DNA from: Candidatus Aldehydirespirator catecholifindens
GTDB taxonomy: Bacteria > Actinomycetota > Acidimicrobiia > Acidimicrobiales > Aldehydirespiratoraceae
Direction of reading: 5' to 3'
Length of the DNA: 40,654 nt
NCBI GenBank assembly: GCA_028283245.1
Contig: JAPYNU010000082.1
Location: 1 to 40,654, forward strand
The notes below the pieces were generated by a model. That model worked only from the letters and a program-made list of their open reading frames with translations, searched no databases and was not told the origin of the DNA. Shown piece by piece: positions 810 to 31,407 of the stretch. Position numbers and translations under genes: made by a program. The first letter of the stretch is position 1; the number at the start of each line of letters is the position of its first letter.

Positions 810-857
810 CTCCCTCTTAGTCTCCTCTTAGCTCCCTCTTAGTCTCCTCTTAGCCTG
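803..857. repeat. Five 11-bp tandem repeats (CTCTTAG core) joining two convergent gene ends
   Basis: Units begin at 803, 814, 825, 836 and 847 and alternate CTCTTAGCTCC and CTCTTAGTCTC, so there is also a 22-bp dimer period. Each unit carries TAG on the plus strand and TAA on the minus strand. The upstream gene stops at 807-809 in unit 1 and the helicase stops at 850-852 in unit 5. Because 11 is not a multiple of three, the array places stops in every frame on both strands. Confidence 0.9.
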
Positions 858-5752: not shown

Positions 5753-7741
5753 CTACTCTTTGTTGCCGAAGACCATGCGGTCTCGCAAGTTGCCAGCCGC
5801 TTCAAATGCGTCCTCGTCAAGCCCCCAAGCTTTTGCTAGGAGCCAATCAGCTTTATCGGTTAGATAACGCAGCTTCAGCATGTTGTAGCGACCAACCTTG
5901 ATGCCTGCGTTTGTTTGCCATGCGAGATGTTTGGGCATCTCATTCTGAAGGGTTCTTGACAGCTCGAGTAGAATAACGAGTTCCATGTCACCCGGTGAGC
6001 GCTTGGAAAGCCGTTCGATGTCACCCGGGAACGCTGAAAGCGTGCTGCGGGTGACATGGAACTCGTCGCCGTACATCATCCACCATAAGTAAGCCCATCT
6101 GCCAGCGAGCATCACTAGAGCCAGATCACGGTGTTCGCAGCAATCGAAATAGAGATATCCGGTTCGCTTGCTCTTGGGATTTGCCGCTCGGCCTGTAGTG
6201 GGGTCCACAGATGGCGGCTCGTCCCTGAATACGCTCAAGAAGTACCGTGCAACAGTCTTGAATCCGACTCGGTGCTCAGTAGGTTTGGTGAGCAGACTAG
6301 AAGCAATATTGGAATTTGATTCTACAAGACGACTGACGGACGCGTTGATGACGGGGTCGGAGAAAGGCCACTGAGGAATTGACACGCAGTCGGTTAGCGA
6401 CTTAGTCACACGAACAAACTCAAGGTTATGAAACAACCGATCTCTTGTACTTGACAGCCAACGGTTGCACCTGGTAGTTATGGTATCGCTCGTATATGAG
6501 CGCTCGTTTCTTGCAGTGACGATTGAGTTTCTAACGTCTGCCGATCCAGCAAATAAGCTGTCAGGGCGTTTGGCATATGAGGATGCCCACACATCTCCAA
6601 GTTGTGATCGAAGGAATTCGCGCAGTGATAGGAACTCTCGACTGAAACACAGGGAGTGCATGACTATCATGGCGAAGCGGCCGGTTTTGTTTATTAGGGT
6701 GGTGGCTCGTTCCATGCATACTGCGTAGAGGTCGGGGCATTTTTCGGTTTTATAGCCGACCCAGGTGTAGTCGCTTACCAGGCTGGTCTTGATGTAGGGC
6801 GGGTTGCCGATGACGACATCGAAGCCGCCGTTGCGCCACACGCTTGGGAACTCGACGAACCAATGGAACGGACGATGCGAGTTGCGCCACGCCTCGAAGT
6901 TCTCGGTCTCGTCTCTCATGTCGTGAAGGAGCGTGTCGGCCATGTTGCGAGCGGCATCCAGTTTCGCTCGGAGTTTCTGCTTTGCGCTGGTGTGGTCGAG
7001 GCTGCCCGTGTCGGTCGCCTCCGCCTCGATGTAATCGTCGAAGACTTGCGCGATCTGCTTGGCGGTTGCTTCCACCTGATCAAGCTGGGCCACATGGTCG
7101 AGCCGCTGACTGAACAGCCGCTTAGTAGCGTCGGCTTCGTCGGCAATACCGACCAGCAGATTGCCGGTCTTGATGTTGAAATCCAGATCGGGGAGCGGTT
7201 CCAGCAGCCCCACATCATCGACCTGAGCAGCGAGTTTCAAGAACAGGCGCAGTTTGGCAATCTCGGGAGCTTCGTCCATCAAATCAACGCCGTAAAGGTT
7301 GTTGAGACACAACGTTTTGAGCATCCGGTAACGCTCGCTGGGATGCTTGCGGGCATCGTGCAAGAACTCCGCACATTGTTCATCGCCGTGCCGGTCTTGA
7401 AGCTCGGCGGCTCGCCCCAGCAGCGCCGCATAAAGCGGGTCAAGCACTTCAAGCGCTGCAAACAAAAACGCTCCCGACCCGACAGTCGGATCACAGATCG
7501 TCAACGACCGCAAAACGCCGAAAGCAGTGTCGCATTCTTCGGCTGTGGCGAGCTGAGCGAGATAATCGCCAATCAGTTCGCGCATGTCGAGGTTCTCGGT
7601 TATGGCGTCGTCAATGCTCCAGACACGTTGCGGATCCGACAGGCGCTCAAATTGTTGGCGGTAACGCTGCCGTCGATGCACCACATCGCACCAGCGTTCG
7701 CCTGCAAGCGCAAGCTCGTCGCTGGGCGGTGGCAACTCCAC
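5753..7741 (-). CDS. C-terminal part of split N6-adenine DNA methyltransferase (catalytic half)
   Basis: This is the distal part of a gene that would read 9078 to 5753 if intact. The fragment has 662 residues from a possible GTG at 7741. It carries methyltransferase motif I CDPTVGSGAFLFAAL (about 83-97) for S-adenosylmethionine binding and motif IV GNPPYIK (312-318), the adenine-N6 catalytic motif. A long target-recognition-like region and C-terminal domain follow. The frame stays open upstream through the GGAC repeat to a stop at 7904-7906, with no good ATG. It resembles Eco57I/PglX/COG1002-type methyltransferases of BREX, DISARM and type IIL-like systems. The upstream half is in another frame because of the 16-copy repeat. 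The N-terminal domain and motif X are not on this fragment, so alone it is probably inactive. Confidence 0.85.
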   Translation of the reverse strand: MELPPPSDELALAGERWCDVVHRRQRYRQQFERLSDPQRVWSIDDAITENLDMRELIGDYLAQLATAEECDTAFGVLRSLTICDPTVGSGAFLFAALEVLDPLYAALLGRAAELQDRHGDEQCAEFLHDARKHPSERYRMLKTLCLNNLYGVDLMDEAPEIAKLRLFLKLAAQVDDVGLLEPLPDLDFNIKTGNLLVGIADEADATKRLFSQRLDHVAQLDQVEATAKQIAQVFDDYIEAEATDTGSLDHTSAKQKLRAKLDAARNMADTLLHDMRDETENFEAWRNSHRPFHWFVEFPSVWRNGGFDVVIGNPPYIKTSLVSDYTWVGYKTEKCPDLYAVCMERATTLINKTGRFAMIVMHSLCFSREFLSLREFLRSQLGDVWASSYAKRPDSLFAGSADVRNSIVTARNERSYTSDTITTRCNRWLSSTRDRLFHNLEFVRVTKSLTDCVSIPQWPFSDPVINASVSRLVESNSNIASSLLTKPTEHRVGFKTVARYFLSVFRDEPPSVDPTTGRAANPKSKRTGYLYFDCCEHRDLALVMLAGRWAYLWWMMYGDEFHVTRSTLSAFPGDIERLSKRSPGDMELVILLELSRTLQNEMPKHLAWQTNAGIKVGRYNMLKLRYLTDKADWLLAKAWGLDEDAFEAAGNLRDRMVFGNKE

Positions 7742-9078
7742 ATACTCGGACTGGTCGCCGCTGCGCCACTGCCACGGCCACAGTTCCCCGACCGGCGGAC
7801 GGTCCAGGTCCGTCCGTCCGTCCGTCCGTCCGTCCGTCCGTCCGTCCGTCCGTCCGTCCGTCCGTCCGTCCGAGTCGGCAAGTTTATTCCGTGGGCGAGC
7901 GAGTCATGGAGATATGTGTCACCTGAGCCGGTCAACAGGATCGCCGGGTCTTCTAGTCCGGCAGCCACGAAACGGTCGGCGAGTGCGGGCAGGATTGTCG
8001 ACGCAGCCATATAGCCGGTCACGTCCGGTTTGGTGTAGTAAGCACCCTTCTCTTTTTGGCCTTTCTCGGTGAAGTTGATGTACTGCTCAAAGATGAAACC
8101 GAGAATGTCAGGGTTGATTTCTTTAGGGTCGCCTGTCGGGTTTTCGTCCAGATGCCAGCGCCAAGCATCAAAGAAGTCGAATAACGACTCAAAAGCCTCA
8201 TCGCTGATTTGAATATCGTGAGTGGTTTCCAGTTCGTGAGGCTCGAAGATGCCGCCGTTCACATACGGCACGTCACCGATGATTGTTTTGATCTCGGTAT
8301 CTGAGTAGCTGGGGTCAGGGCTCCCCAGACCTTGATGAAATAGCGGCAATAGGAACTGCTTGTAAAAGGCGTAGAACTGACCGACACCGTAATGCTCACG
8401 CACTTTCTGCAGGCGTGAGCGCAGATAGTGCGGATCGTTGGCGAGGAACCCCTTGCGCTGAATGAAATAGATAAACATCAACCGGTTGAGCAGCACCGAC
8501 GAATACCATCTGCGGCTCTTGGCGGTCGGAATGCCCTCAACCCTCATTGCGAACTTTTTGTGATGCTGCTGGAACTCACGGTAGAAGGATTTGGTCACCT
8601 TGTCGGCGTTGAACGACTTTCGAATCCGTGTCAGCACCGAACTTGAAGTCAGGCAGTCCTCTTCGGCGATGCTGAACTTCGCTTGAGCGAGCCTTTGCAA
8701 CAACGCGTCGGTGGGTTCATGCACCGGATACTCGTGATCCACCAGCCGATAGCCCACGCCGCTGGAACGCTGCTCGGGCCACAGCCACAGGTGCTTGTCA
8801 GGTGCGGTGAACACCACCAACTGGTCGCGGCTGAGCCGTTTGAGGCGGCGCACCACCCGATGCTGCTCTGAGCGCATCGGCAGCCCAGCGGGGCAGTCCA
8901 CCCGCCAAGCAGTCACGCCCTTCTTGCCAGCCACCGCCACCGGCCTCAGCGAACTGTCGGGCACGCTGACCGAATCGCGCTGCTCAGGCTCGGGCTCGGG
9001 GTTGTCCCAGCCCATCCTGCGGAACAGCGCACCAAAATCACCCTGCTGGAGCAGTTTCGACAACTCTTCGTGCTGCAT
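7600..9078 (-). CDS. N-terminal part of split N6-adenine DNA methyltransferase
   Basis: A 492-residue reading frame starting MQHEELSKLLQ. Residues 1-402 are the genuine N-terminal domain of a large Eco57I/PglX-like methyltransferase, ending with the motif X region GAYYTKPDVTGYM (345-357). From residue 403 the frame enters a (GGAC)16 tract translated as repeating RTDG, then runs about 69 residues out of frame relative to the catalytic half and stops at 7600. Gain of one repeat unit (17) or loss of two (14) joins it to the fragment 5753-7741. With 17 units the whole gene is 3330 bp, giving 1109 residues. As sequenced the gene is therefore off. The start ATG 9078 is divergent from the aminotransferase gene 188 bases away. 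Confidence 0.85.
   Translation of the reverse strand: MQHEELSKLLQQGDFGALFRRMGWDNPEPEPEQRDSVSVPDSSLRPVAVAGKKGVTAWRVDCPAGLPMRSEQHRVVRRLKRLSRDQLVVFTAPDKHLWLWPEQRSSGVGYRLVDHEYPVHEPTDALLQRLAQAKFSIAEEDCLTSSSVLTRIRKSFNADKVTKSFYREFQQHHKKFAMRVEGIPTAKSRRWYSSVLLNRLMFIYFIQRKGFLANDPHYLRSRLQKVREHYGVGQFYAFYKQFLLPLFHQGLGSPDPSYSDTEIKTIIGDVPYVNGGIFEPHELETTHDIQISDEAFESLFDFFDAWRWHLDENPTGDPKEINPDILGFIFEQYINFTEKGQKEKGAYYTKPDVTGYMAASTILPALADRFVAAGLEDPAILLTGSGDTYLHDSLAHGINLPTRTDGRTDGRTDGRTDGRTDGRTWTVRRSGNCGRGSGAAATSPSMWSCHRPATSLRLQANAGAMWCIDGSVTANNLSACRIRNVSGALTTP
7808..7872. repeat. Tetranucleotide microsatellite (GTCC)16 inside the methyltransferase gene
   Basis: Sixteen perfect GTCC units (7808-7871) plus one further G; the coding strand reads GGAC repeats. 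The tract lies in a linker between motif X and motif I. Each unit changes the frame by one base. Frame arithmetic: the N-terminal frame is at position 0 modulo 3 and the C-terminal frame at 1, so 14, 17 or 20 units are in frame and 16 is not. In-frame alleles differ only by four-residue RTDG insertions. Long perfect tetranucleotide tracts are the classic substrate for slipped-strand phase variation, as in the mod genes of Haemophilus and Neisseria. Confidence 0.95.
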
Positions 9079-14706: not shown

Positions 14707-14901
14707 CTACCACGGCGCTGAGCGATCCATCCTCTTAGCCGCAGCGAGCGGGTCAGGCTTGCTTGACGGTTCTCCAGCTGCTAGCGCGGCATCGGAGACA
14801 AGTTGTTGAGCGAAGGTTGTTGTCACCTGAGCCGCGTGGCGACGAAGCTGCTCGGTCACCCAACTTGAGAAGGGGATGCTGAGACTGTTGTTGCTTGTCA
14901 T
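14707..14901 (-). CDS. Small 64-residue protein coupled to the surface-protein gene
   Basis: The ATG at 14901 overlaps the TGA of the 906-residue surface protein by four bases, a typical coupled arrangement and the main reason to accept this short frame. The sequence (LSIPFSSWVTEQLRRHAAQ near the start, SKPDPLAAAKRMDRSAPW at the end) has one amphipathic helix and no signal peptide. No family is recognised. It could be cytoplasmic and unrelated to the exported neighbour, or a spurious frame. Confidence 0.4.
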   Translation of the reverse strand: MTSNNSLSIPFSSWVTEQLRRHAAQVTTTFAQQLVSDAALAAGEPSSKPDPLAAAKRMDRSAPW

Positions 14902-17618
14902 GGGTTGAGCTTTTGGCGGGCTCGGTTGACGAAGGTGGCCATTTCCGCGCGGGTGGTTTGCTGGTCGGGACAGAACCGCAGTTCAGGCTCGGCACTGCAT
15001 CCAACGGTGATGCCTGCGGCATACAGAGCAGCGATGTCAGCAGCGTGAACGTTGTCGGTAGCCACATCGGCGAAGTCGGCGGGATCTTGCGGAGTGGGAA
15101 GGTTTAAGGCTCGCACAATGAAGCTAGCCATCTGAGCACGAGTCACCGGCTGGTCGGGACAGAACCGCAGTTCAGGCTCGGCGCTGCATCCGAGTGTTAC
15201 CTCAAGTTCAGCCAAACGTTCAATGAAAGGCGCCCACTTCTGGTCGGCTACCACATCAACGAAGCGCGATGCATCACTAGGTGCAGTGTCGGCACCGTCA
15301 AGAAGGCGCACCATCCATATCGCCATCACCCAGCGCTCAATCGGCTGGTTCGGACAGAACAAGCTAGTTTCGCATTCGGTGCCTGTGAGCAGTCCCGCCT
15401 CCTCGATCGCTTCGATCGCGTCGGTGTGAACACCGGCCATAATGATGTCGACAAAGGCGGTTTCGAACGGCTGTGGCTGTGGTTGCGGCTGTGACGGCGC
15501 AGCCGGTGGCGGACTTCTGCGAATTGGAGTCTGACTCCCGCCGCCTCCGCCGCTGCTTCTGGGGGGTGGACTCACATTGCCACCATTGCTATCGGGAGTT
15601 ACGGAGGGCTGGTTGATTTGGGGGGTGGCTTGATTGCTTGTAGCTGCTTGTGCTGTTTTGCCTGGACCTTCGCCGTCGCTATAGGAGGCGGTTGCTTGAA
15701 GGTAACGCCCTACGTCGCTGCTTTGTGGTGTGTAGCTAGCTGAGGTGGCACCGCTAATCGTGGTCCAAGTGACCTGGTTCGTGGAACGCTGCCAACTCCA
15801 AGTTGTGGAGGTGACCCCGCCGTCGGGGTCTGTGAGAGACGCAGTCAGTGCAGTGCCCATAGTCGGAGCCACAGCCGACAGTGCGACCGTGCCAGGCTCG
15901 TCAACGTTGGTGATGTTGATGGTGACCGTGATTGAGTCGCTGTCACCGCTGGGGTCAGTGGCTGTGACCGTCACCGAATACGTCTGTTGTGACTCATAGT
16001 TGAGAGCCGCCCTGGTTCGCAGTTGTCCTGTAGAGCCATCAATGTTGAAAGAGGCTGCGTCAGTGCCGCCCAAGGTGTATGTCAGCGTGTCGCTGTCAGC
16101 GTCTGAAGCCTCCACCGCAGAGCCGATTGCGGCACCAGAGGCGGTGTTCTCAGCCACGCTGAGTTGCTCTGTTGCCTTCCCGAAGTCGGGTGCCCGGTTA
16201 GGTGTCGCTGTGGCTGTGACCGGATTGCTTAAGGCTGCCTGAGCTGTTTTGCCTGAACCTTCGCCGTCGGTATAGGAGGCGGTTGCCCGCAGATAGCGCC
16301 CCACATCGCTGCTTTGTGGCGTGTAGCTAGCTGAGGTTTCACCGCTGATCGCGCTCCACGAGACTTGGTCCGTCGAACTGTCCCAGACCCAAGTCGTGGA
16401 GGTGACCCCGCCGTCAGGGTCTTGAAGGGTTGCTGTGAGTTCTTTGCCCGTTGCAGGCATGCCTGACGACAGTGTGATCGTGCCGGGTTCGTCAATGTTG
16501 TTGATGTTGATGGTGACCGTGATTGAGTCGCTGGCCCCATCAGGGTCGGTGGCTGTGACCGTCACCGTGTATGAGGACCGCTGCTCGTAGTTGAGCGCAG
16601 CGCTGGTGCTTAGCTGACCTGTTGATCCAGCAATCGTGAAAGAACCGGCATCGGCACCGCTAAGGGTGTAGGTGAGAGCATCGCTGTCGGCATCGGTGGC
16701 TGTGACGGCTGCGCCGATGTTGCTGTTGGTGGGGGAGTTCTCGTCGATGCTTCGACTGGTGGCCGACGAGGCGAACACGGGAGCGTTGTTGGACGGTTCT
16801 GGCTTCGGCTGTGTTTTGCGTATGAATACCAGCTGCGCTATCGGATTGTTGGAGAACTTACCGGTGTTGCGGATGCTGGTGATGGCCTGTTTCGGGTTGG
16901 TATCTGGGTTACTCAATGAGAAGCCTGAGCCGCCCTCGGTGCCAGCATCGTAAGGGAACAGGTCGACCTCTTTGCGGTTAACCCAGTCTGAACCATCATG
17001 CAGTGACAGGTTCGAAACGCCCACGAACCAGTCTGGGGTAGGTGCCACCATCGAAATCAGAGTTACTAGCGGGAAAGACTCAGACACGTCAACGGAGCTG
17101 GTGCGGGTGAAGTTGCGGAGCCCCGATCCGACGTTGATCCACTCTCGGGCAGTTTTTGCTGTGATAGCTGAGTTGACTTCGCCGCGGAAAGTGCCAGTGC
17201 CCCCCGTTTCGGCTACTGACTCAATGCCTGATGTTGCGGTGCCTCCCCGCTCCCAAAACGTGACACTGCTGCCGTGGACTGCGCCTACCATCGTTGTGAA
17301 ATGGGCACCTGAAGGGATTGAGACACCTGACGCCAGCGCTGCGGTGGTCCATTTGCCTTTGAACTGCACTTCGTAGCGCTCCAGAGTCTCAGTTTGATCC
17401 TCTGTCTGGAACACGGTCACCGGCGACGAGTCCTGCTCCTGCGCCGCGGCTAAAGGTGAGACTGTTGAGGCCAAAAATGCGATAATCGTGACGATCGTTG
17501 CGAACCGAAGCCTGCGTATCAATACACCTTTGCGGCTATGAGCTTGTTTGCGGTTTTGTGCTAGTGCAGGAATCCGGCATCTAGTTGATTGTGCAGCGGT
17601 CAAGTGTGCTTGGGTCAC
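14898..17618 (-). CDS. Secreted spondin-cadherin-SLH surface protein
   Basis: A 906-residue exported protein. A signal peptide spans about residues 35-60 after a basic leader (RRLRFATIVTIIAFLASTV...AAA). A spondin-N-type domain (about 78-268) contains KGKWTTAALASGVSIPSGAHF and MVGAVHG. Then come two tandem pairs of a cadherin-like repeat (279-377 and 477-575; DADSDALTYTL, DPDGASDSITVTI) and an Ig-like module (378-468 and 576-665; DPDGGVTSTTWVW, SYTPQSSDVGRYL). A Pro/Gly/Gln-rich linker (666-718) leads to three SLH-type repeats (719-906) with paired cysteines as in GCSAEPELRFCPDQP. SLH repeats anchor proteins to cell-wall polymers, and cadherin and spondin modules suggest calcium-dependent adhesion. 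Start GTG 17618 has GGAGGAG seven bases upstream. Confidence 0.88.
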   Translation of the reverse strand: MTQAHLTAAQSTRCRIPALAQNRKQAHSRKGVLIRRLRFATIVTIIAFLASTVSPLAAAQEQDSSPVTVFQTEDQTETLERYEVQFKGKWTTAALASGVSIPSGAHFTTMVGAVHGSSVTFWERGGTATSGIESVAETGGTGTFRGEVNSAITAKTAREWINVGSGLRNFTRTSSVDVSESFPLVTLISMVAPTPDWFVGVSNLSLHDGSDWVNRKEVDLFPYDAGTEGGSGFSLSNPDTNPKQAITSIRNTGKFSNNPIAQLVFIRKTQPKPEPSNNAPVFASSATSRSIDENSPTNSNIGAAVTATDADSDALTYTLSGADAGSFTIAGSTGQLSTSAALNYEQRSSYTVTVTATDPDGASDSITVTININNIDEPGTITLSSGMPATGKELTATLQDPDGGVTSTTWVWDSSTDQVSWSAISGETSASYTPQSSDVGRYLRATASYTDGEGSGKTAQAALSNPVTATATPNRAPDFGKATEQLSVAENTASGAAIGSAVEASDADSDTLTYTLGGTDAASFNIDGSTGQLRTRAALNYESQQTYSVTVTATDPSGDSDSITVTINITNVDEPGTVALSAVAPTMGTALTASLTDPDGGVTSTTWSWQRSTNQVTWTTISGATSASYTPQSSDVGRYLQATASYSDGEGPGKTAQAATSNQATPQINQPSVTPDSNGGNVSPPPRSSGGGGGSQTPIRRSPPPAAPSQPQPQPQPFETAFVDIIMAGVHTDAIEAIEEAGLLTGTECETSLFCPNQPIERWVMAIWMVRLLDGADTAPSDASRFVDVVADQKWAPFIERLAELEVTLGCSAEPELRFCPDQPVTRAQMASFIVRALNLPTPQDPADFADVATDNVHAADIAALYAAGITVGCSAEPELRFCPDQQTTRAEMATFVNRARQKLNP

Positions 17619-20917: not shown

Positions 20918-21014
20918 TCAGCATCCGTCTAAGCAGCAACTCAACCGCAATCTCTGCCTAAGCAGCTTCAGCGTTTTGCGCCTAATCAGCAACCGAATTC
21001 TTCTACTAAGCAGC
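20914..21014. repeat. Five copies of CTAA(T/G)CAGC joining two convergent gene ends
   Basis: Copies start at 20914, 20929, 20958, 20982 and 21006, the last three spaced by exactly 24 bases. Each carries TAA on the plus strand and TAG on the minus strand. The upstream enzyme gene stops in the first copy (20915-20917) and the AddA-like gene stops in the last (21006-21008). The arrangement mirrors the CTCTTAG array at 803-857. Confidence 0.8.
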
Positions 21015-24000
21015 TGCAGGCATTGCTTGTGCGACAGCAGCCTTTGCCTCAGTAACCGCAGATTCGAGGTCTGCGAGTTCAGCCTCCACGACTTCGGTGT
21101 TGACGGAGTTCATAAACACGAACACCATCCGAGCCACGGTTTCACCGGTCACGGCTTGCAGCGCAGCCGCGTATGCGGCACCTTGCAGACGGTATCGATC
21201 CACTTTGGCGGCGATGTCGGCATCGTCTGTGATCACGTCGGTTTTCCAGTCGACCACTACGAGCCCTTCGCTGCTGCGGTAAACGAGATCGATATAACCC
21301 TCAAGCACACGCTCACCGAAAGACGCAGCCACGAACAGTTCTCGCCAATGCTGTGACTCCGCAGCTTCGCGGGCTACGGTAGTTTCGAGCGCTGCCTGCG
21401 CTAAGGCGGTCACTGTGGAGGTTCGTGAGGTCACACCTTCTGCGCCAGCGTGATGTCTAGCTAGATCTGCGAGACCGTCACGGCTGAGAAGATCAACGTC
21501 TTGCAGCACGGCGTGAACAGCGCGGCCTATAGCGGTGCCGTAACGACCTTTGCGCCACAGGTTGGCATCCTCGTCGCCGGGGTCTTTGTGAAGCCCTGGG
21601 TCAGAGTCGTCTTCGGCTGCGCTATTCGCAGAGCCAGAGTCGGAGTCAGGGTCAGGGCCAGAGCCGGAGTCAGGGTCAGCTGCATCATCAGTTATCCCAT
21701 TGAAGCGGGCGATGCCGCTGGCTGACATTGCGAGCGGCTTTGAAGCCTCCTCAAGGCTGCTTTGCAGTTGCTGAGACCATTCATCGCGATCGGAAAGCTC
21801 GGCACGGTCAAGTTCTGTAGAGGACGTGTCCCGCAAAGTGGTCGGGCCTGCGTCACCTGCTGGCGTGTGGTCAACATCTTGCGTGTCTATGCCCCAAGTG
21901 GCTGTTTGTGCGGCACCTGCATCTACTAAGGCCCAAGCCGCCGTGTTTGGCTTATTGTCGCTCTCGCCAGGGTCTTTGCGATACAGACTCACCACCAAAT
22001 GGTCACAGGCACGAGTGCAGGCCACATACAGCAGACGAAGGCGTTCAGCGGCGTCCATCTGGTCATCTTCTGACTTCCAGGCTTCGTAGTTCTGCGACTC
22101 GACTCCTTTGCGCATTCTCACCGCTGGCTTGCCATCAGAGTCGAAAGCAACGGCCGGGCCTCGGGTGGGTTTCTGAAGCCGAGCGGTCATGCCCGAAAGC
22201 ACCACGACCGGAAACTCAAGGCCTTTGGCTGCATGCACTGTGAGAATGCGCAGGCTGTCGTCGTCGGTTTCGGGCAGCACCGACTCGGTAACACGAGCTT
22301 TGTCGGCACCTTGCAGGCGAGCCCATTGCAAATAGTCACGAAGATTGCTGCCACCAGTGTCGGCCCAGGCTTGAGCCTGATCCATCACAAAACGCAGCCG
22401 CCGCCACACATCGCGGGGTCTTCCGCCAGCCACAGCCGTCTCGAAAGCTCCACGCTCACGGATCAGTCGCGCCAGAAGAGCTGGCGGGCTGGTCCAGCGT
22501 TTCGCTTCATGCAACTCGGCTAGATGAGTGATCGATGCCGCCACCGGGTGATCGGGGTTGTGATCTTGCGGTAGGCGGCTGATCAGCGAGAAACGTCCGT
22601 TGCAGGCACTACGCCAATGAGCTAGATCATCATCACCGCAGCCGTAAAGCGAGGATCGCAGAGCCGCCACCAACGCCAACTCGTCGGTGGGGTCGGCCAC
22701 AGCTTGCAGTGCGTGAAGCGCGTCGCGCACCTCGCGTGTGTTGTAGACCAGCGAAGAAGCTTCAACTCGATACGGGACAGAGGCCTCTTCTAGAGCGTCT
22801 TCAAGATCGGCCAGGCTGTTGCGTGAAGGGATCAATATTGCGATGTCTCCAAAACGCGCTGGTCGCAGTGCTGGCTCGTCAGGCGAACCCTCATCAACAG
22901 ACCATCTGTCGCTGATGACCTGGCTCACTGTTTGGGCTACGGCTTGTGCCTCATGTCGCCGTAACTCGGCTGCGTAAGTGCTGCCTTCCAGTGTGATGGG
23001 ATTCGCTCCGAGCACTGTCACACTGGGACCTGTCGGCACTGGCTCTCGCACTGAGTTCAGCGGCGCATATTCGGGCTGCCTGCCCTCTATTGGTGTGATC
23101 AACTGGCCGAACACGGCGTTGACCCAGTTGATTATTTGATGCGTAGAACGGAAGTTGGTGGTAAGCCCCTCAGTGCGGCCGCTGTCTTGGTCTTCGACCC
23201 ATTGGCGTGCTGTAAGGAAGGTGGCGATGTCGGCACCGCGGAAACGGTAGATGGACTGTTTAGGGTCACCAACGAAAAACAGTCGGCCTGGGTCGGGTGT
23301 CGTGTCCGTCCAGCTAGATGCCCCAGCAGCGCCTTCGCTACATCCGAGGAGCGCGGCGAGTTCAACCTGGATCGGGTCTGTGTCTTGAAACTCGTCGATC
23401 AGCAGATGCCGGTAGCGCTCACGCAGAGCCTCTCGAACCGCTGGTCCGTGTGTGGAGTGGCGCAGCAGCCCCCGGGCTTGCACCAGCAGGTCATGAAACT
23501 CAAGACGGCCACCGGTGCGCCGCTGCTCGGCGGCGTTCAAGGTGAAGACGGCAAGTCGCGCTACTAGGCACGTCAACGCAGCCTCGGCTGCGGCTTGCAG
23601 CGCATGTTGGCAGATGTCTTTCAGATGAGTGATGCTGTCTCGGGCATCTTGAACCTTGCCACTCCAGTTATCGGCCTTGCCATACTTGGTTCCTTTGCAT
23701 TCTCGCTCGGTGGCCAGCAGCGCTTCGATACGTTCAGCAGCGATGTCGTGGATGTCGGCGATTTCATCGGTTTTGCTGTCCTTGGCGAGCGCAAGTTCCA
23801 GCCGACTGCGCTGCTTGGCGATCGTGTTTATGCGATTCAGTAGTTTGTCGTCGGCGTCTGTGCAGAACGGACGCAGGGCGATCAAATGGTTAAGCGCAGC
23901 GAGCGCCTCGACCACGTCAACGGCGCGAAGATCGGTTTCGAGGCTCAGTTCACACCGCTCTAGGCGGTCCCAGTTGTTGTTGAGTTGAACGGCCAGAGCA

Positions 24001-24515
24001 CGAACCTGATTGAGGTTCACTCCTTGCACTTCGAGCCCCAACAGGGTTGGTGCCATGGCGGTCTCGTCAAGGAGTTCATCAAGGAATTCGCGCCAGCGAA
24101 CATCGAACTCGATCTGTGATCCGATGTCGTCAAGTACTTCCACTCTGGGAGGTAGTCCTGCCTCTATCGGATGCTCCGACAGGATGCGCTGCGCGAAGGA
24201 ATGCAGAGTGCCCACCGCTGCGCCGTCGAGCTGCTGCAAAGCCGCAGCCGTGCGCTCTCGCCCCAAATCTGCAAGGGTTTCGGTGCTTTTGAGGCGGGCG
24301 CGGATCCTGTCACGGAGTTCGGCAGCGGCTTTCTCGGTGAAGGTAATAGCTGCGATGTTCTCCATCGGCACACCTGAGCCGATGAGTGCCAGCACTCGGT
24401 CGACAAGCGCTTTGGTTTTGCCTGAGCCTGCTCCTGCTTCTACGAACAGCGTGCTGCTCAGATCGGATCTGATCGCCTCTCGGTTTGCTTGGTCCGCTAA
24501 CTGCGATGAGGTCAC
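21006..24515 (-). CDS. addA: AddA-type UvrD helicase with C-terminal PD-(D/E)XK nuclease
   Basis: A 1169-residue protein. It has all SF1A helicase motifs: Walker A EAGAGSGKTKALV (about 26-38), LIDEFQDTDPIQ (motif II), VGDPKQSIYRFRGAD (III), TTNFRS (IV) and LTVHAAKGLEFPVVV (V). A RecB-type nuclease domain sits at the C-terminus (GRAVHAVLQ, GYIDLVY, VVVDWKTD). An acidic Asp/Ser/Pro linker of about 30 residues precedes it. With its partner it would unwind and resect double-strand breaks for RecA loading and degrade linear foreign DNA. The ATG overlaps the stop of the AddB-like gene by four bases, so they form one operon. Actinobacterial AdnB is an alternative family name. Confidence 0.88.
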   Translation of the reverse strand: MTSSQLADQANREAIRSDLSSTLFVEAGAGSGKTKALVDRVLALIGSGVPMENIAAITFTEKAAAELRDRIRARLKSTETLADLGRERTAAALQQLDGAAVGTLHSFAQRILSEHPIEAGLPPRVEVLDDIGSQIEFDVRWREFLDELLDETAMAPTLLGLEVQGVNLNQVRALAVQLNNNWDRLERCELSLETDLRAVDVVEALAALNHLIALRPFCTDADDKLLNRINTIAKQRSRLELALAKDSKTDEIADIHDIAAERIEALLATERECKGTKYGKADNWSGKVQDARDSITHLKDICQHALQAAAEAALTCLVARLAVFTLNAAEQRRTGGRLEFHDLLVQARGLLRHSTHGPAVREALRERYRHLLIDEFQDTDPIQVELAALLGCSEGAAGASSWTDTTPDPGRLFFVGDPKQSIYRFRGADIATFLTARQWVEDQDSGRTEGLTTNFRSTHQIINWVNAVFGQLITPIEGRQPEYAPLNSVREPVPTGPSVTVLGANPITLEGSTYAAELRRHEAQAVAQTVSQVISDRWSVDEGSPDEPALRPARFGDIAILIPSRNSLADLEDALEEASVPYRVEASSLVYNTREVRDALHALQAVADPTDELALVAALRSSLYGCGDDDLAHWRSACNGRFSLISRLPQDHNPDHPVAASITHLAELHEAKRWTSPPALLARLIRERGAFETAVAGGRPRDVWRRLRFVMDQAQAWADTGGSNLRDYLQWARLQGADKARVTESVLPETDDDSLRILTVHAAKGLEFPVVVLSGMTARLQKPTRGPAVAFDSDGKPAVRMRKGVESQNYEAWKSEDDQMDAAERLRLLYVACTRACDHLVVSLYRKDPGESDNKPNTAAWALVDAGAAQTATWGIDTQDVDHTPAGDAGPTTLRDTSSTELDRAELSDRDEWSQQLQSSLEEASKPLAMSASGIARFNGITDDAADPDSGSGPDPDSDSGSANSAAEDDSDPGLHKDPGDEDANLWRKGRYGTAIGRAVHAVLQDVDLLSRDGLADLARHHAGAEGVTSRTSTVTALAQAALETTVAREAAESQHWRELFVAASFGERVLEGYIDLVYRSSEGLVVVDWKTDVITDDADIAAKVDRYRLQGAAYAAALQAVTGETVARMVFVFMNSVNTEVVEAELADLESAVTEAKAAVAQAMPAAA

Positions 24516-27500
24516 GATGCCCCCTCGACTGGTTGTGCCGTTGCTTGCGCCGTTGCCTGATCCTGCTCACGATCAGGGTCGACAAGGTCCAAGTAGCTAG
24601 CCAGATCTGGGTCGCCTTGTTTGCGCTGCCAGTCGCGCCACTGGTCACGGGTGCCTAAACCGTCGGGATCGCAGTAGTCACACGACACCCACGGCTGCCC
24701 GCTGGGTTCATCAGGATGCAACGGAAATAAACCGTCGTTGATCCCGTCAATGATGGTATTGACGGCTTCGAGCACCTGTGGGCGAGCGTCATCGGTGGGG
24801 TAGCCGACGTCTTGGAACTGTCCCTTGGTCGAAACGAACCAGTAAGCACCATGACTGCTTGCGGCTTGCGAGATGTTGAGCAGCGTGCGGGCTGCTAGGC
24901 CATATAAGACGAGCTGGAGACGGCTGCCACCGAGTGTCGGATCATCAACGCTGAGCTTCTCGTATGACTTGGCGGAGCCTGTCTTGTAGTCGATTACTAG
25001 CAGGCCTCCGTCGAGGGTGTTGTCGATGCGGTCGATAGAGCCGCGAACGTTCACGAAGCGACCGTCGCTGATTTCGATGCTGACAGAACCGCGTTCGCTG
25101 CCTGGCAAACCGAAATCGAGTTCCGCTTTGGCGGGCTTCGAGTTGTAGAGCGTGCGCTGCTCGTCGTCGAATTCCAAGAAGCGGACAAGGTCTTCCGCGA
25201 TCTGGCGGCGGTCGTGCTGCCAGTAGAGCTGGCGTCCGACCAGCCCACGAGCGGCGAACTTGTCGCATTCTTGTGCGGCTAGTTCAAGCAGTCGAGCTTG
25301 TAGTCGTTCGGGCCAATGTTGTCTGGGTTCAGGCACAGCATCGTCGGCGATGGCTTCGCTGAGCCAAAGTTCGAGGATGCGATGCACGAGGCTGCCGCGT
25401 TCCAGCGGGGTGATGCGGTAGTCGTCGTCAGCATCGTCAACAGGATCTACCTTCAAGACGTAGCGCATGAAGTAGGCGTGAGGGCATCGCGCCCATAACT
25501 CCAGCCGCGAAGCCGAAACCGTAGTGCCGTCAATGTCGGGACGTGCCAAAGTCGCGCCTCGTAACTGGCCTGCCGACAGGTTGCCATCGAAGCGAGTCAA
25601 CTTTGACGACATGCGGGCTCGGCGCATTTCGATGCCTCGCCGTAGTTCCGGCCGAAGCCGCACTCCCGGTATCTGGTCGAGTTCGTTCCATCGGCTGGTG
25701 TCGCGGTTTTTGGAGTCGTGCCAGTCGAGCAGGCAGCGCGTGTCGTACTCTTGTGTATGCGCCGGGAAAGCTGTGCGACGCAGCCCAGCCACAAATGACG
25801 GCACCACTTCGGGTTCGCCCGCATAGTCGAGCAGCCAGCGGCTCGGTGAACGGTCAGCGGCTCGGCGTAGATCACCTCTGGGGCACAAAAGCAACGTTTC
25901 ATCTGCGGCGGCTAGCACGGCTACTAGCGCCCGATGATCATCGCCTGACCGGTCGCCTCGGGCAGGCAGATCATTACCAACGACACGCCGTTCGCGATCA
26001 GGCAACAGCGTGTCGTCGCTACGGTGAGCCGGGAAAGCACCCTCAGCCATGCCGCACACCACCGCAAGGTCGAGTTCCATGCCGACCGCCATACTCACCG
26101 GACCCACAAACACTCCCCAGCCCAAGCGTCCGTGCTGGCTTGACGAGGTCTCCATTTCGTGGCGCAAAGCTCGTCGGAACACTGCAACCGAGGCTGGCTC
26201 TCCCGTGCTGTCAAGCTCGCTCAGCCATTTAATGGCCTGATCGACGCGGCTGGCCATCTCACGTTCGTCGTCGGGCCAACTAGAGCGGGTTCTGCCTCCC
26301 AGGTATTTATGCACAAGGTCTTGGCACCACTTCGACATTTCCGCCCATGAACCCAGCGGTTTTGACGGGTTCAGGTCGCTGTGCAGCTCTGTTATGAAGC
26401 TGCGAAGTTCGTCGGCTCGCAGGGCACTGCGAAGCACGCTCTGTGTTCTCCACGACTGTTCTTCATCGCCTTGTAGTCGGTCGGCTTCGTCTCGGCGGTC
26501 AGCGGCGTAGCGTTCGAGCCGTTGCTGCCAACTGTCGATTCCTGCTTCAACTCTGGCTGCCCGAGCGATTCGCTCCCAAGCCGCTGTGGGAGCGCTCTGC
26601 CATTGGCTGCCGGTTGAAGCGCCGCCGGTTGTGTCGCCGCCAGCTGAAGCGCCGCCGGTTGTGTCGCCTGCAGCTTCGGTGCTTTGATGATCGGCTAGGC
26701 GCACACTGGTGGGCGCACCGGCCAGCCATGCCATCACAGACCGACGCGAGAAACCTCGGCCTTGTACTTTTGTGCTGGGCTCGCTGTCTGTAAGTGCCAG
26801 CATCTCCAGCAGCGACCGACCCAGAAGCGATGTCTCCACAGTGCGCACCGTTGATCCGCATCGTGGGATAGCTGCTGCGTCCAAAGCGTCGCTTAGCAGA
26901 CGGGCATACGGTGCGTCGAGCCCGTAGAGAATGGCGCATCGACCCAGTGGCGTGCCTTTGCGGGCTGCGTCAACCACGGCCCGTACTGCGTGTCGCACCT
27001 CGTCGTCAGCATCGGACAAGCTCACGGCCCGCACTCCGTCATCTGTTGGTCTGAGGGCGGATGGTTCTGGATGGGGTGCCGTTTGGGGAGCGGTCTGGTT
27101 TACGCCGAGTTGCTGCAAGCAAGCCCAGACGGCTGCGTCGGCATCTTGCGCCCCAGTGAGCCCTGCGATGATTTTGATGCCGATCGTCTCAGCCAAAGCA
27201 CGCAGCAGCAGCGTCTGGGTGCGAGTGAAGCTTTGCGGCAGAAACACGATCACCGGGCCAAGCTTTTGTTGTGCCTGATCAGGGTTGGCTCGCACCAGTT
27301 TTTCAGCAGCCTCAGCTAGTTGCGGCGAAGATGTAAACCCAGCAGCGTCAAGGTCAGAGGCCACCTGTCGATGAATTCGCACAACATCTCGAGCGCGCGG
27401 CGACTCGTGTGCGAGTTTCTTGAGTTGTGCGTCGGTTAGTTCCGATAATTCGCGGTGTGCTCGTGTGAGAGCCAGTTCAGTGGCGGGATGGTTTTCGACA

Positions 27501-27931
27501 CCGCGAAAGTGCCCAGGGTTTTCACGCAGCGCCAAACGAACCGTTGACGCGATGATTGCGCCGCTGGCACCTCGATGCTTTTTGGATGTCATGTTTGTGG
27601 CTGCGAGCCGCTCGGCGAGCCTGTGAACGGTGAGGCAAGCCACAGCAGCAATTCCGCTGCTCGCAGACCGTCGACCGTTCTGAGACCGCTGAAAGTCTTG
27701 AGATCGCTGCCCGTCTTGAGACCGCTGCCCGGCCAGCGCCCGCCGAGCAGCCAAGCCCACATAGTTGATCGGCACCACCACAGTCACCGGGGCCAAGCAG
27801 TCGCCAGCTTTGGCCTCGGCAACAGCGTCGGCCAGAGCCTGATGCGCAGGCGGCCCAAAAGCCGTGCGGATCAACTCGATTTTCGTGTAGCCCACCGGTT
27901 CATTCGCCCCGAATCTCAACTCACTTGCCAT
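24512..27931 (-). CDS. addB: AddB-type helicase-like/nuclease subunit
   Basis: A 1139-residue partner of the AddA-like protein. The N-terminal half resembles a UvrD-type fold without a functional Walker A, as in AddB. The C-terminal half has a RecB-type nuclease (GSLVHRILELW, GSIDRIDN, LLVIDYKTGSA). AddB proteins normally hold a [4Fe-4S] cluster through four cysteines, one before and three after the nuclease. Here the first (LWARCPHAYFMRY) and the C-x2-C pair (SCDYCDPDGLGTRDQW) are present, but the expected last cysteine is absent, with GT in its place. Two in-frame tandem repeats are visible (18-bp x3 near the N-terminus, 30-bp x2 in the middle). The gene starts at ATG 27931, with no gene in the 200 bases upstream. 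Confidence 0.82.
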   Translation of the reverse strand: MASELRFGANEPVGYTKIELIRTAFGPPAHQALADAVAEAKAGDCLAPVTVVVPINYVGLAARRALAGQRSQDGQRSQDFQRSQNGRRSASSGIAAVACLTVHRLAERLAATNMTSKKHRGASGAIIASTVRLALRENPGHFRGVENHPATELALTRAHRELSELTDAQLKKLAHESPRARDVVRIHRQVASDLDAAGFTSSPQLAEAAEKLVRANPDQAQQKLGPVIVFLPQSFTRTQTLLLRALAETIGIKIIAGLTGAQDADAAVWACLQQLGVNQTAPQTAPHPEPSALRPTDDGVRAVSLSDADDEVRHAVRAVVDAARKGTPLGRCAILYGLDAPYARLLSDALDAAAIPRCGSTVRTVETSLLGRSLLEMLALTDSEPSTKVQGRGFSRRSVMAWLAGAPTSVRLADHQSTEAAGDTTGGASAGGDTTGGASTGSQWQSAPTAAWERIARAARVEAGIDSWQQRLERYAADRRDEADRLQGDEEQSWRTQSVLRSALRADELRSFITELHSDLNPSKPLGSWAEMSKWCQDLVHKYLGGRTRSSWPDDEREMASRVDQAIKWLSELDSTGEPASVAVFRRALRHEMETSSSQHGRLGWGVFVGPVSMAVGMELDLAVVCGMAEGAFPAHRSDDTLLPDRERRVVGNDLPARGDRSGDDHRALVAVLAAADETLLLCPRGDLRRAADRSPSRWLLDYAGEPEVVPSFVAGLRRTAFPAHTQEYDTRCLLDWHDSKNRDTSRWNELDQIPGVRLRPELRRGIEMRRARMSSKLTRFDGNLSAGQLRGATLARPDIDGTTVSASRLELWARCPHAYFMRYVLKVDPVDDADDDYRITPLERGSLVHRILELWLSEAIADDAVPEPRQHWPERLQARLLELAAQECDKFAARGLVGRQLYWQHDRRQIAEDLVRFLEFDDEQRTLYNSKPAKAELDFGLPGSERGSVSIEISDGRFVNVRGSIDRIDNTLDGGLLVIDYKTGSAKSYEKLSVDDPTLGGSRLQLVLYGLAARTLLNISQAASSHGAYWFVSTKGQFQDVGYPTDDARPQVLEAVNTIIDGINDGLFPLHPDEPSGQPWVSCDYCDPDGLGTRDQWRDWQRKQGDPDLASYLDLVDPDREQDQATAQATAQPVEGAS
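26615..26674. repeat. Two 30-bp tandem repeats in the AddB-like gene
   Basis: Units 26615-26644 and 26645-26674 differ at very few positions. They encode GDTTGGASAG and GDTTGGASTG in frame, a flexible Gly/Thr linker insertion. Confidence 0.85.
27681..27734. repeat. Three 18-bp tandem repeats near the N-terminus of the AddB-like gene
   Basis: Units at 27681, 27699 and 27717 share TGAGA(C/T)CGCTG. They encode repeats of the form RSQ(D/N)(G/F)(Q/R) in frame, giving a polar surface insertion. Confidence 0.8.
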
Positions 27932-28130: not shown

Positions 28131-28921
28131 TTAATTTTTAGTAGCAGATCTGTGGTCATCTAGACGAGTTAATCCTTGTGCGATCAAATTCTTAGCGGCA
28201 GTTCTAATCTCAATACCGGACTCATCACTATATGCTAATAATCGATCAAACGACTCTACTTCGTCGGCCTGCCATACAAGTTCAAGGCGTCTTGTAGGCA
28301 ATGTAGCAATATGCTCGTAGGGTTGATCTGGACCAGCCCAATAGCATTTTTCACATATGGAATCTTGACGCTCAGCCCAGTTAGGGCAGCTCTCACATGC
28401 CCATGACTTGACCCGATTCATAGCAGCACTTACAGGCATGAAGTCTCTAACATTGAATGGACGCATCGGATCACCTGATACGTGAAATGGAATTCGATGA
28501 TCAATCTGAAGTTCGTCTGATTCAAAAACAATTCCAGTAAAAATATCTCTTTGGCCGTAGTGATTGAGTACATCTTGTCTGAATTGTTTGGAGATGGATA
28601 GCCGTTCATGAGCTGTCATATCAAGAGCTATCGGGAGATCTGGGAATCGGTAGTGAGCGACTTGCTTACCGTCTACCTCTTTCATCACAGTCTCGAGTGG
28701 AATGCCTCGATCTCTTACATCTCGAGCTGCTCGAGGAGGGTGATCGTAACCGAGTGCTGCGAGAGTTGTTGTCGTCACGTAGCCGTGAACTAATATTTCT
28801 TCTACTACACGTCTATTTCTTCTACTACACGTCGGCTGCGTCCAGATGTGCGATCTAATATTTGCTTGATGGTGGCTTGATCAAGGTCTGCCTTGGATGG
28901 GCCAATTTCAGAACTAGACAC
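28131..28921 (-). pseudogene. HNH restriction endonuclease, frameshifted by a 20-bp tandem duplication
   Basis: Reading starts at GTG 28921, five bases after the methylase stop, and gives SSSEIGPSKADLDQATIKQ then GRSRRVVEEI. An exact second copy of 20 bases then forces a stop after 38 residues. Removing one copy joins this start to the long downstream frame without any other change, giving 256 residues (EEILVHGYVTTTTLAALG...). The downstream part has an HNH-like core (LQIDHRIPFHVSGD, FNVRDFMPVSAAMNRVKSW) and a Cys4 zinc site (CESC...CEKC). It lies directly after a Dam-type methylase, so it is the expected cognate type II nuclease. As sequenced it is probably inactive, although a GTG at 28778 could still start a 215-residue form. 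The sequence is AT-rich, suggesting acquisition. Confidence 0.8.
28794..28833. repeat. Exact 20-bp tandem duplication in the HNH endonuclease gene
   Basis: Copies 28794-28813 and 28814-28833 are identical (TATTTCTTCTACTACACGTC on the plus strand). Twenty is not a multiple of three. Frame check: the start at 28921 is 1 modulo 3 and the main frame is 2 modulo 3; deletion of 20 bases makes them agree. Confidence 0.95.
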
Positions 28922-28926
28922 GGCTA

Positions 28927-29832
28927 TCAGGGGGATAGTAGCAGTTGTTTAGTAGTGTCTTTTGTGCAGGACATTCTACCGAGTAGATGAGGTGAAATGT
29001 AGAGTGATTCGGTTGTGTGTTCTGTGCGCCCTAGTAGCGTAGCGGCTGTAGATCGACCAGCATATAATTCCATGCGGTGAAGTCCCAATTCAGATGGAAG
29101 TGGTGGCCCATACGTCTTGGTACCGGTCTGGCCATCATAGGATAATACAAATGGAACTCGCATATCTATCAGGTCCGCCAAGAAGCACTCAAACTCTGAG
29201 CGGACAACCGTACATGCGTAACGGGAGTCTCTCGTTGAAGATACGCCCTGATAGGGAGGATCCATATACCAGACTTGACCTTTTTCATAGAGTGCAGGCA
29301 TTGCGCGATAGTCAATAGCTGTAATACGAGTCCGGCCTCGCAGAGCATTGGATATAGCTGAGATTCGTTTCGCCACTATATGAGGTTGCGTCCCGAGCCT
29401 TCTATTGTCGGAGCTTTGATTGAAGTGCCCCATTGAGTTGTAACGAACGGCACCCTTCACAGCTCGGGAGAGCAGATAAAAAAGATCAGCAGAATTGTGA
29501 TCCTCATTGAATCTATTTCGAATCGTTATATAGAAACCTTGTGGATCAGATTTCTGAGCATGCCATAGTTCTGAATAGTCTTGGACAAGGCGATTAGGCT
29601 CTTCAAGAATCACACGCCACAGATCCGCAAGAGGCTTATTCTTGTCGTTGATCCAGTAGCATCCCGCAAGACGATCTATCGCTGCACGAACAGAAACAGC
29701 GGCAGAACCTGCGAACGGTTCTACCAGTTCTGAGTCCCTGGACAGCTGGAGCCGCTGGATGATCACTGGTGCAATCAGACGCTTTGAGCCCTGATACTGA
29801 AATGGTTGCAACATTGAGTTCGCCTTCTGCAT
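28927..29832 (-). CDS. Type II N6-adenine DNA methyltransferase (Dam/D12 class)
   Basis: A 301-residue D12-class enzyme with the alpha-group motif order: motif X LQPFQYQGSKR at the N-terminus, motif I LVEPFAGSAAVS for S-adenosylmethionine, and motif IV VWYMDPPYQG with the catalytic DPPY. It methylates adenine in an unknown recognition sequence. The HNH nuclease gene begins five bases after its stop, so the pair is a type II restriction-modification system with the methylase first. Start ATG 29832 has AAGAAGGG just upstream. The gene is AT-rich compared with its neighbours, and the methylase is intact while the nuclease is disrupted, leaving a protective but non-cutting state. Confidence 0.9.
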   Translation of the reverse strand: MQKANSMLQPFQYQGSKRLIAPVIIQRLQLSRDSELVEPFAGSAAVSVRAAIDRLAGCYWINDKNKPLADLWRVILEEPNRLVQDYSELWHAQKSDPQGFYITIRNRFNEDHNSADLFYLLSRAVKGAVRYNSMGHFNQSSDNRRLGTQPHIVAKRISAISNALRGRTRITAIDYRAMPALYEKGQVWYMDPPYQGVSSTRDSRYACTVVRSEFECFLADLIDMRVPFVLSYDGQTGTKTYGPPLPSELGLHRMELYAGRSTAATLLGRTEHTTESLYISPHLLGRMSCTKDTTKQLLLSP

Positions 29833-29998: not shown

Positions 29999-31015
29999 TT
30001 AGTGGTAGTGGGTTTTCTTGATCATTTGGCGGATCCACTCGCCTGAGGTGACCGGCTCATGGTGGGGAGGATCATCAGCCGAAGCACAAGTCGGGATGCA
30101 CTCAATAACAGCGTCGTAGGCGGGCTGATGAAAGAACGCAACCGAGATGCGGCTGCCGACGGCCTGCTCGTGGACTACCACCCGATGCTGAGTCGATACC
30201 CAGCGATCATTAGTCCAAGCAGCCATCAGATCACCGAGGTTCACCACCAGAGAGCCCGCAACCGATGGGACATCCGTCCAGGCACCTTCCGGTGACAGAA
30301 CTTGCAGTCCCGGTTGGCTGTCGTGGTGCAGGATCGTCAAGCTTCCCCAGTCGGTGTGGGAGCCTCGCCGGTACTGTCCAGGCAGCGGAGGCGCTTGCAG
30401 TTCTGGATAGTGAAGCACGGTAAGGCCGGTGATGTGCTCGGCGATCTTGTCATCGAACCAGTGCTCATCCAGATTCAACGCCAGCGCCATCAGCCGCATC
30501 AGGTCGGTGGCCAAAGCCTCCAGCACCGCATAACAGTCGTTGAGAGCTTCCCTGAAACCTGGAGCCTGCTTTGGATCAGGCCACACGTTGGGAGCAAAGA
30601 AATCCGCTCGACCGTCACCGGCTACGGCATGTGAACCGGCCCGAACCGCGTCGGCAGGATCATCGAAGCGGCTCACAGAGAAAGCTTCAGCCAAGTCTGG
30701 GGGAGTCACCTCGTCATGGGCTAGCGCCAGCGCCGAACTACGTAACGGCACATAACCCAAACGGTTTTGATCATGGCGCACCCAAGACATCTTCACTTGC
30801 AGCGGCAGCGCGAACAGTTGCCGCGAAACGAAATCCACCCTCTGTAGTAGTTCTGCCGAGATGCCGTGGCCGGTAATCAGCAGAAAACCGACATCTTCAC
30901 ACGCCTGCCGAATGGCATCCACAGCCTCGTCTCGCCGAATACCCGGCTCGAAAGCACCAGACAGATCCACCAGTGGCACCCGAGCCGACATTGATGCAGA
31001 AGAGGTCATGCTCAT
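29999..31015 (-). CDS. 2-oxoglutarate/Fe(II)-dependent oxygenase, isopenicillin N synthase-like
   Basis: A 338-residue member of the isopenicillin N synthase-like family. The N-terminal module (VPLVDLSGAF, CEDVGFLLITGHGI) precedes a jelly-roll core with iron ligands His220 and Asp222 (SHTDWGSLTILHHD) and His277 (TQHRVVV), and the co-substrate pair Arg289/Ser291 (SRISVAFFHQP). Such enzymes hydroxylate or oxidise small molecules; the substrate cannot be inferred. ATG 31015 overlaps the stop of the upstream gene by four bases; ATG 31009 and 30991 are alternatives. It is transcribed away from the repeat array in front of the upstream small gene. Confidence 0.88.
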   Translation of the reverse strand: MSMTSSASMSARVPLVDLSGAFEPGIRRDEAVDAIRQACEDVGFLLITGHGISAELLQRVDFVSRQLFALPLQVKMSWVRHDQNRLGYVPLRSSALALAHDEVTPPDLAEAFSVSRFDDPADAVRAGSHAVAGDGRADFFAPNVWPDPKQAPGFREALNDCYAVLEALATDLMRLMALALNLDEHWFDDKIAEHITGLTVLHYPELQAPPLPGQYRRGSHTDWGSLTILHHDSQPGLQVLSPEGAWTDVPSVAGSLVVNLGDLMAAWTNDRWVSTQHRVVVHEQAVGSRISVAFFHQPAYDAVIECIPTCASADDPPHHEPVTSGEWIRQMIKKTHYH

Positions 31016-31407
31016 GGAAAGAGGGCGCTGAATGCGGTCCAGATCAGCCACAGGCCAACGACGATGAAAGGCCCTGGTATGGCGATGAACACGATCCACG
31101 TCAGAGAGCGCACCCAGCCGGGACGATCAGCGAAACGGCGCTGATGAAAGGCTGCGTCGAGGCGTTCAGCTTCCAGATCGGGCTGCTCAAGCCCCAGCAG
31201 GTCGGCGGCCACCTCAGCGACCTCCACCCGAACCACCAGCAAAGCCAGCCGGTGAGTCATGTGATGCGGTGCCACTTCGCTGGCTGGATCAACTAGCACG
31301 GTGGCTTCATATCCCGCCTCATGCAGGCGCGCTGCGGCTACATCAGCCTCGAAACGACTGGGATACTCAGCGATGGCGACCATACCCGGCAGCGGTCTCA
31401 TCCTCAT
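31012..31407 (-). CDS. DUF2007-like protein with C-terminal membrane segment
   Basis: About 131 residues. The N-terminal part VAIAEYPSRFEADVAAARL...GYEATVLVD resembles DUF2007 domains, which are small ferredoxin-like modules of unclear signalling role. A membrane segment lies at the C-terminus (WIVFIAIPGPFIVVGLWLIW). Starts at 31407, 31401 and 31383 are all possible; 31425 is less likely because it falls inside the first unit of an intergenic tandem repeat. Its stop overlaps the oxygenase start by four bases, so the two are probably coexpressed. Confidence 0.65.
   Translation of the reverse strand: MRMRPLPGMVAIAEYPSRFEADVAAARLHEAGYEATVLVDPASEVAPHHMTHRLALLVVRVEVAEVAADLLGLEQPDLEAERLDAAFHQRRFADRPGWVRSLTWIVFIAIPGPFIVVGLWLIWTAFSALFP

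What the first reader, a model, noticed from the sequence alone, without database searches (positions are those of the whole stretch)
28131..28921. Restriction endonuclease inactivated by an exact 20-bp duplication while its methylase stays intact
The duplicated 20 bases shift the frame and create a stop after 38 codons. Removing one copy restores a 256-residue HNH endonuclease with its Cys4 zinc site, with a start five bases after the methylase stop. Perfect identity of the copies means the event is recent or reversible, and RecA-independent slippage could restore the gene. Losing the nuclease but not the methylase is the survivable direction.
Basis: seen in the sequence. Interest (0 to 1): 0.75.

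Follow-up and report, generated by a model that had tools for sequence, protein, structure and literature searches.

The report
Restriction enzyme gene broken by duplication
A bacterial restriction-modification gene pair has lost its DNA-cutting half to a recent, exact 20-letter duplication while the protective half stays intact, which is an ordinary kind of gene loss; the same genome also carries what look like genuine repeat switches in other restriction genes.

Summary
An exact 20-bp tandem duplication (28794-28833) breaks the frame of an HNH restriction endonuclease after 38 codons, 5 nt downstream of an intact D12 (Dam-type) adenine methylase. Chance expectation is about 5e-8. A congener (G011, JAPOUM010000043) has the same cassette at the same chromosomal position with one copy of the 20 bp and an intact 256-aa enzyme. 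All 81 family members compared have at least 31 residues before the internal start at 28778, and the predicted fold places the break inside the N-terminal winged helix, so a short active form is unlikely. R and M show similar purifying selection (dN/dS 0.115 and 0.087), so the loss is recent. Copy identity alone dates it poorly.

Best reading: recent accidental inactivation of a Type II nuclease leaving its methylase, physically revertible but not a dedicated switch. The repeat is absent in the sister, and this lineage is full of short exact tandem duplications (24 in 337 kb).

More unusual: a Type IIG gene in the window (9078-5753, minus) is split by (GGAC)16 at 7808-7872. Congeners carry different repeats at the same site: (CGAC)13, (TCGG)9(ACGG)5, (AGTC)13, G9. 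That is a probable conserved phase-variable locus.

The parts
28927..29832 (-). M gene: D12-class (Dam-type) N6-adenine DNA methyltransferase, 301 aa, intact, with YMDPPY and FAGSAA motifs
   Evidence: PDLC03341 MTase_II E=7e-70
28805..28921 (-). 5' fragment of the R gene: GTG start, 36 family codons, then 2 codons out of frame and TAG
   Evidence: aligns to residues 3-36 of the sister enzyme
28794..28813 (-). 20-bp tandem copy (promoter-distal)
28814..28833 (-). 20-bp tandem copy (promoter-proximal), identical
   Evidence: single copy in sister G011
28131..28793 (-). 3' fragment of the R gene: 220 codons, rest of the winged helix plus HNH/Cys4 nuclease domain; frame open, no proper start
   Evidence: (PDLC03566 REase_II E=3.6e-47)
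28776..28778 (-). first ATG/GTG/TTG in the downstream frame (GTG); unlikely to be a functional start
   Evidence: no Shine-Dalgarno-like sequence by eye; 81 of 81 homologues extend 31 or more residues further

Best explanation
The locus is a chromosomal Type II restriction-modification cassette: a Dam-type adenine methylase followed by a winged-helix plus HNH/Cys4 nuclease. It was under selection until recently. A spontaneous 20-bp tandem duplication inside codons for the first core helix of the nuclease's winged helix then shifted the frame (shown by sequence and by the single-copy allele in the sister species). Translation ends after 38 codons and the nuclease is not made (inferred). The methylase keeps marking its site, so the cell survives and behaves as if it carried a solitary methylase (inferred). 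Slippage or recombination between the copies could restore the gene at low frequency, so the allele is in principle revertible (inferred from known systems), but nothing shows that this is a selected switch.
For: Exact tandem duplication far beyond chance. Sister G011 has one copy, an intact 256-aa R and M at the same place in collinear DNA. All 80 homologous loci fetched carry a D12 methylase beside R (70 tandem, 10 convergent). R matches PADLOC REase_II PDLC03566. 81 homologues all extend 31-88 residues upstream of the internal start, with R28, V32 and I36 conserved at 98-100%. AF2 model (pLDDT 91.8) has a winged helix at about 12-98 and HNH at 100-194, with the break inside helix 27-39. R dN/dS 0.115 vs M 0.087; lineage-specific residues window:sister 8:6 in R and 11:6 in M, so there is no sign of a relaxed phase. 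No in-frame slippery heptamer. Exact short tandem duplications are common in G000 (24/337 kb) and G011 (27/188 kb), expected 0.
Against: No reads were available, so the duplication could be an assembly error or a minority strain's allele. The window protein has E at a position that is G in all 81 homologues (residue 99), which may mean R was already impaired or has been decaying longer than the rates suggest. Enzymatic activity of the family rests on a PADLOC name and gene context, not on a test here.
Confidence: 0.8

Rival explanations
1. The 20-bp repeat is a real on/off switch: the duplication is gained and lost often, so the population holds restricting and non-restricting cells that all keep the methylase.
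For: Exact adjacent copies, unit not a multiple of 3, and an otherwise preserved reading frame. Spontaneous tandem duplications in pneumococcal capsule genes cause phase variation (Waite 2001, 2003, as cited in PMC4022640). The same genome has repeat-split Type IIG genes.
Against: Only two copies; no repeat at this place in the sister; ordinary for a lineage rich in short tandem duplications; E at the family-invariant G99 fits poorly with frequent returns to function. PMC4022640 gives at most about 1e-5 for insertions up to 9 bp; no figure for 20 bp was obtained here.
Confidence: 0.1
2. Assembly artefact or strain mixture: the genome really has one copy and an intact nuclease.
For: The genome is a 104-contig draft, probably a metagenome assembly; no reads were available.
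Against: Tandem duplications in this genome have many unit lengths (10-45 bp), not one k-mer length. In ORFs of 150 aa or more they are mostly multiples of 3 (9 of 11) and outside them they are not (1 of 13), the pattern of real mutation filtered by selection.
Confidence: 0.07
3. The gene is still expressed: internal initiation at 28778, programmed frameshift, ribosome hop between the copies, or split-protein complementation.
For: Both frames overlap at 28880-28805 and the repeat gives matched codons 20 nt apart.
Against: No slippery heptamer; no homologue starts near residue 42; an internal start would remove the first two helices of the winged helix.
Confidence: 0.03

Closest known systems
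PADLOC REase_II family PDLC03566 with a Dam-type D12 methylase (Type II restriction-modification)
   Same: Same nuclease family over almost the whole length, same partner methylase, usually adjacent and co-directional.
   Different: Here the nuclease frame is broken by a 20-bp duplication. Recognition site unknown.
HNH/beta-beta-alpha-metal REases with Cys4 zinc (Hpy99I, PacI; PMC4081073)
   Same: HNH-type catalytic residues with a CXXC...CXXC zinc site.
   Different: An N-terminal winged helix is added; no sequence match to these enzymes in the PDB.
wH-HNH 6mA-dependent Type IV endonucleases (PMC11037411)
   Same: Winged helix plus HNH in a protein of similar size (224-283 aa in the paper).
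   Different: Here a Dam-type adenine methylase sits next to the nuclease in 80 of 80 loci, which would be suicidal for an enzyme that cuts its partner's own mark. No direct sequence comparison was made.
Spontaneous tandem duplications in pneumococcal capsule genes (Waite et al. 2001, 2003; cited in PMC4022640)
   Same: Exact tandem duplication in an ORF abolishes the product and can be lost again.
   Different: There phase variation was observed in culture; here there is only one assembled allele.

Membership tests
Type II restriction-modification system | DNA methyltransferase gene with intact catalytic motifs | tested here: met
   PF02086 E=1.4e-28; DPPY and FAGS motifs conserved
Type II restriction-modification system | Adjacent nuclease of a known REase family | tested here: met
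   PDLC03566, profile 36-234 for the 3' piece and 22-231 for the sister; adjacency in 80 of 80 loci
Type II restriction-modification system | Nuclease reading frame intact in this genome | tested here: not met
   Stop after 38 codons; so this is a remnant of such a system, not a working one
Type II restriction-modification system | Cleavage of an unmethylated site, blocked by the partner methylase | not testable with these tools
   Needs enzyme assay
Repeat-mediated phase-variable (contingency) gene | Tandem repeat in the ORF with unit not a multiple of 3 | tested here: met
   20 bp x 2
Repeat-mediated phase-variable (contingency) gene | Repeat kept at this place in relatives | tested here: not met
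   Sister has one copy; contrast the Type IIG gene, where a repeat is present at the same site in 5 genomes of the genus
Repeat-mediated phase-variable (contingency) gene | Copy-number variation within a population | not testable with these tools
   No reads or further strains available
6mA-dependent wH-HNH Type IV endonuclease | Winged helix plus HNH architecture | tested here: met
   AF2 model and VIA-align: residues 12-98 winged helix Z 8.3, 100-194 HNH Z 7.2, both middling
6mA-dependent wH-HNH Type IV endonuclease | No conflicting Dam-type methylase beside it | tested here: not met
   D12/Dam-type methylase adjacent in 80 of 80 loci
Programmed -1 frameshift gene | In-frame X XXY YYZ slippery site in the overlap | tested here: not met
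   None found

The most novel reading that the evidence does not exclude
In this Acidimicrobiaceae genus, restriction is widely controlled by reversible repeat slippage. Type IIG genes carry a site-conserved repeat whose unit turns over between species, a second helicase-methylase fusion carries (TC)15, and the HNH duplication is a young member of the same habit, so that populations hold cells with different restriction states.
Probability: 0.25. Interest if true: 0.6.

Novelty: new member of a known kind. Interest (0 to 1): 0.33.

Why it matters
It is a clean snapshot of how a restriction-modification pair can become a solitary methylase: nuclease lost first, methylase intact, with a single-copy intact allele in a sister species. 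It also pointed to a probable phase-variable Type IIG locus in an uncultured actinobacterial genus; one library search for phase-variable repeat-controlled restriction in Actinobacteria returned a single paper, on Helicobacter.

Tried and rejected
Genome-contig scan with the single window protein found nothing; the profile scan found 412 relatives, best 80 kept. No phage matches. No PDB sequence relatives; Foldseek gave no match at E<=0.001. Internal start, frameshift and split-protein readings rejected as above. A fixed k-mer assembly artefact (20 = 21-1) was considered; diverse unit lengths in sampled stretches argue against it. The neighbourhood search for the empty site in other congeners gave only weak, partial matches to the flanking nuclease gene, so the time of gain is not resolved. 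A literature search for HNH R-M systems with tandem duplication gave nothing on point.

Full report
Observation. The window holds two exact adjacent copies of a 20-bp unit at 28794-28813 and 28814-28833. An exact 20-bp tandem is expected about 5e-8 times in a window of this composition, and no tandem with unit >=14 appeared in 60 Markov-shuffled windows. On the minus strand, GTG 28921 begins 5 nt after the methylase stop and reads 38 codons to TAG. The other frame is open from 28880 to 28131.

Identity of the parts. The upstream gene is a 301-aa D12 adenine methylase (PF02086 E=1.4e-28, PADLOC MTase_II E=7e-70) of the Dam type (TIGR00571 matched, but below its cutoff). The downstream piece matches PADLOC REase_II PDLC03566, E=3.6e-47. 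Relatives on small plasmids of Hymenobacter and Aeromonas lie beside a DNA adenine methylase. In 80 loci from genome contigs the nuclease is always next to a D12 methylase, 70 co-directional and 10 convergent. These loci are the best-scoring of 412, so broken copies are under-represented in the set.

The intact relative. Among 198 genomes searched, the window's own included, only one other, G011 of the same genus, has the gene. Its cassette (L003/L007, Acidimicrobiaceae CAR4_bin_4) lies in collinear DNA, with 76% identical M and R, an intact 256-aa R, and a single copy of the 20-bp unit. The only indel inside the nuclease coding sequence is the 20 bp. The cassette has 46.8% G+C against about 59-61% for its neighbours, so it is probably foreign DNA, but it was there before the two species parted or entered the same site twice (inference).

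Could a shorter protein work? No homologue supports it. All 81 homologues have 31-88 residues before the residue where the window's internal GTG falls, and R28, V32 and I36 in that stretch are 98-100% conserved. The AlphaFold2 model of the sister enzyme (52-sequence alignment, pLDDT 91.8, pTM 0.67) has a winged helix in about the first 98 residues and an HNH fold with CXXC...CXXC at 100-194 (Z 8.3 and 7.2, which the tool warns is middling). The break lies in helix 27-39. There is no in-frame slippery heptamer.

Age. Two identical 20-bp copies only say that divergence is below about 0.075 per site, which is not much. Better evidence is that R and M have evolved alike: dN 0.150 vs 0.147, dN/dS 0.115 vs 0.087, and lineage-specific residues (window:sister) 8:6 in R and 11:6 in M. 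With dS near 1.3 between the species, a nuclease freed from selection for a sizeable part of the window branch would have gathered many more amino-acid changes and probably stop codons (88 of 1980 single changes give a stop). My rough inference is that the loss occupies at most a few per cent of the branch. One caution is that the window has E at residue 99, which is G in all 81 homologues, although the sister also departs from a 99% position at residue 78.

Switch or accident? Exact short tandem duplications are a habit of this lineage: 24 in 337 kb of G000, 27 in 188 kb of G011, 5 in 175 kb of G007, none in shuffled sequence. In ORFs of 150 aa or more the unit is a multiple of 3 in 9 of 11 (G000) and 13 of 19 (G011); outside, in 1 of 13 and 1 of 8. 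So frame-breaking duplications are mostly removed from genes, and the HNH one is an exception in a gene whose loss is tolerable. The repeat is not kept in the sister. Pneumococcal capsule genes show that spontaneous tandem duplications can revert (Waite 2001, 2003, cited in PMC4022640), so reversion is possible but unshown. I therefore prefer a recent null allele over a dedicated switch.

A probable true switch nearby. A Type IIG restriction-methylase gene on the minus strand (PDLC03628: profile positions 9-361 in ORF 9078-7600 and 423-1020 in ORF 7741-5753) is split by (GGAC)16 at 7808-7872. At the same site, congeners have (CGAC)13 (G007), (TCGG)9(ACGG)5 (G013), (AGTC)13 at a contig end (G011) and G9 (G003). 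In the four genomes where both halves are on one contig the second half is in the same off frame. Conserved position with changing unit is what a selected phase-variable locus should look like; a phase-variable Type IIG enzyme is known in Campylobacter (PMC4889913). A further helicase-methylase fusion in the same genome (G000:C67, L153) carries (TC)15 at 3872-3901.

Verdict. As a finding it is a well-documented example of a known process.

Noticed in passing
window 5753-9078 (-), repeat at 7808-7872: Type IIG restriction-methylase gene split by (GGAC)16. Four congeners carry different repeats at the same site, and in all four genomes with both halves on one contig (window included) the second half is in the same off frame: a probable conserved phase-variable locus with repeat-unit turnover.
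   Followed up: partly
L153 25-4083 (+), repeat at 3872-3901 (G000:C67): A helicase-methylase fusion (PDLC03597, Type IIG) carries (TC)15 near its 3' end, followed by ORF fragments: possible second phase-variable restriction gene in the same genome.
   Followed up: partly
G000 and G011 sampled stretches (L140-L169): High density of exact short tandem duplications (7-14 per 100 kb against 2.9 in G007 and 0 in shuffles), mostly multiples of 3 inside ORFs: an unusual mutational habit in the two 2.6-Mb genomes.
   Followed up: partly
window 802-854: 22-bp unit, 2.4 exact copies, at the 3' end of the SNF2/PLD helicase gene 4359-850.
   Followed up: no
window 21006-27931 (-): The R-M cassette lies beside a PD-(D/E)XK nuclease gene and a UvrD-helicase/nuclease gene (AddAB/AdnAB-like), the kind of machinery that would process restriction breaks.
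   Followed up: no
window 29999-31099 (-): A 2OG-Fe(II) oxygenase gene lies between the cassette and the next shared gene and is absent from the sister's otherwise collinear locus.
   Followed up: no
window 14898-17618 (-): 906-aa protein with Spondin_N, cadherin and S-layer homology domains: probable surface protein with animal-like domains.
   Followed up: no
L078 2088-2996: Homologous locus with intact nuclease but methylase split into two ORFs, the unsafe direction; could be a sequencing error.
   Followed up: no
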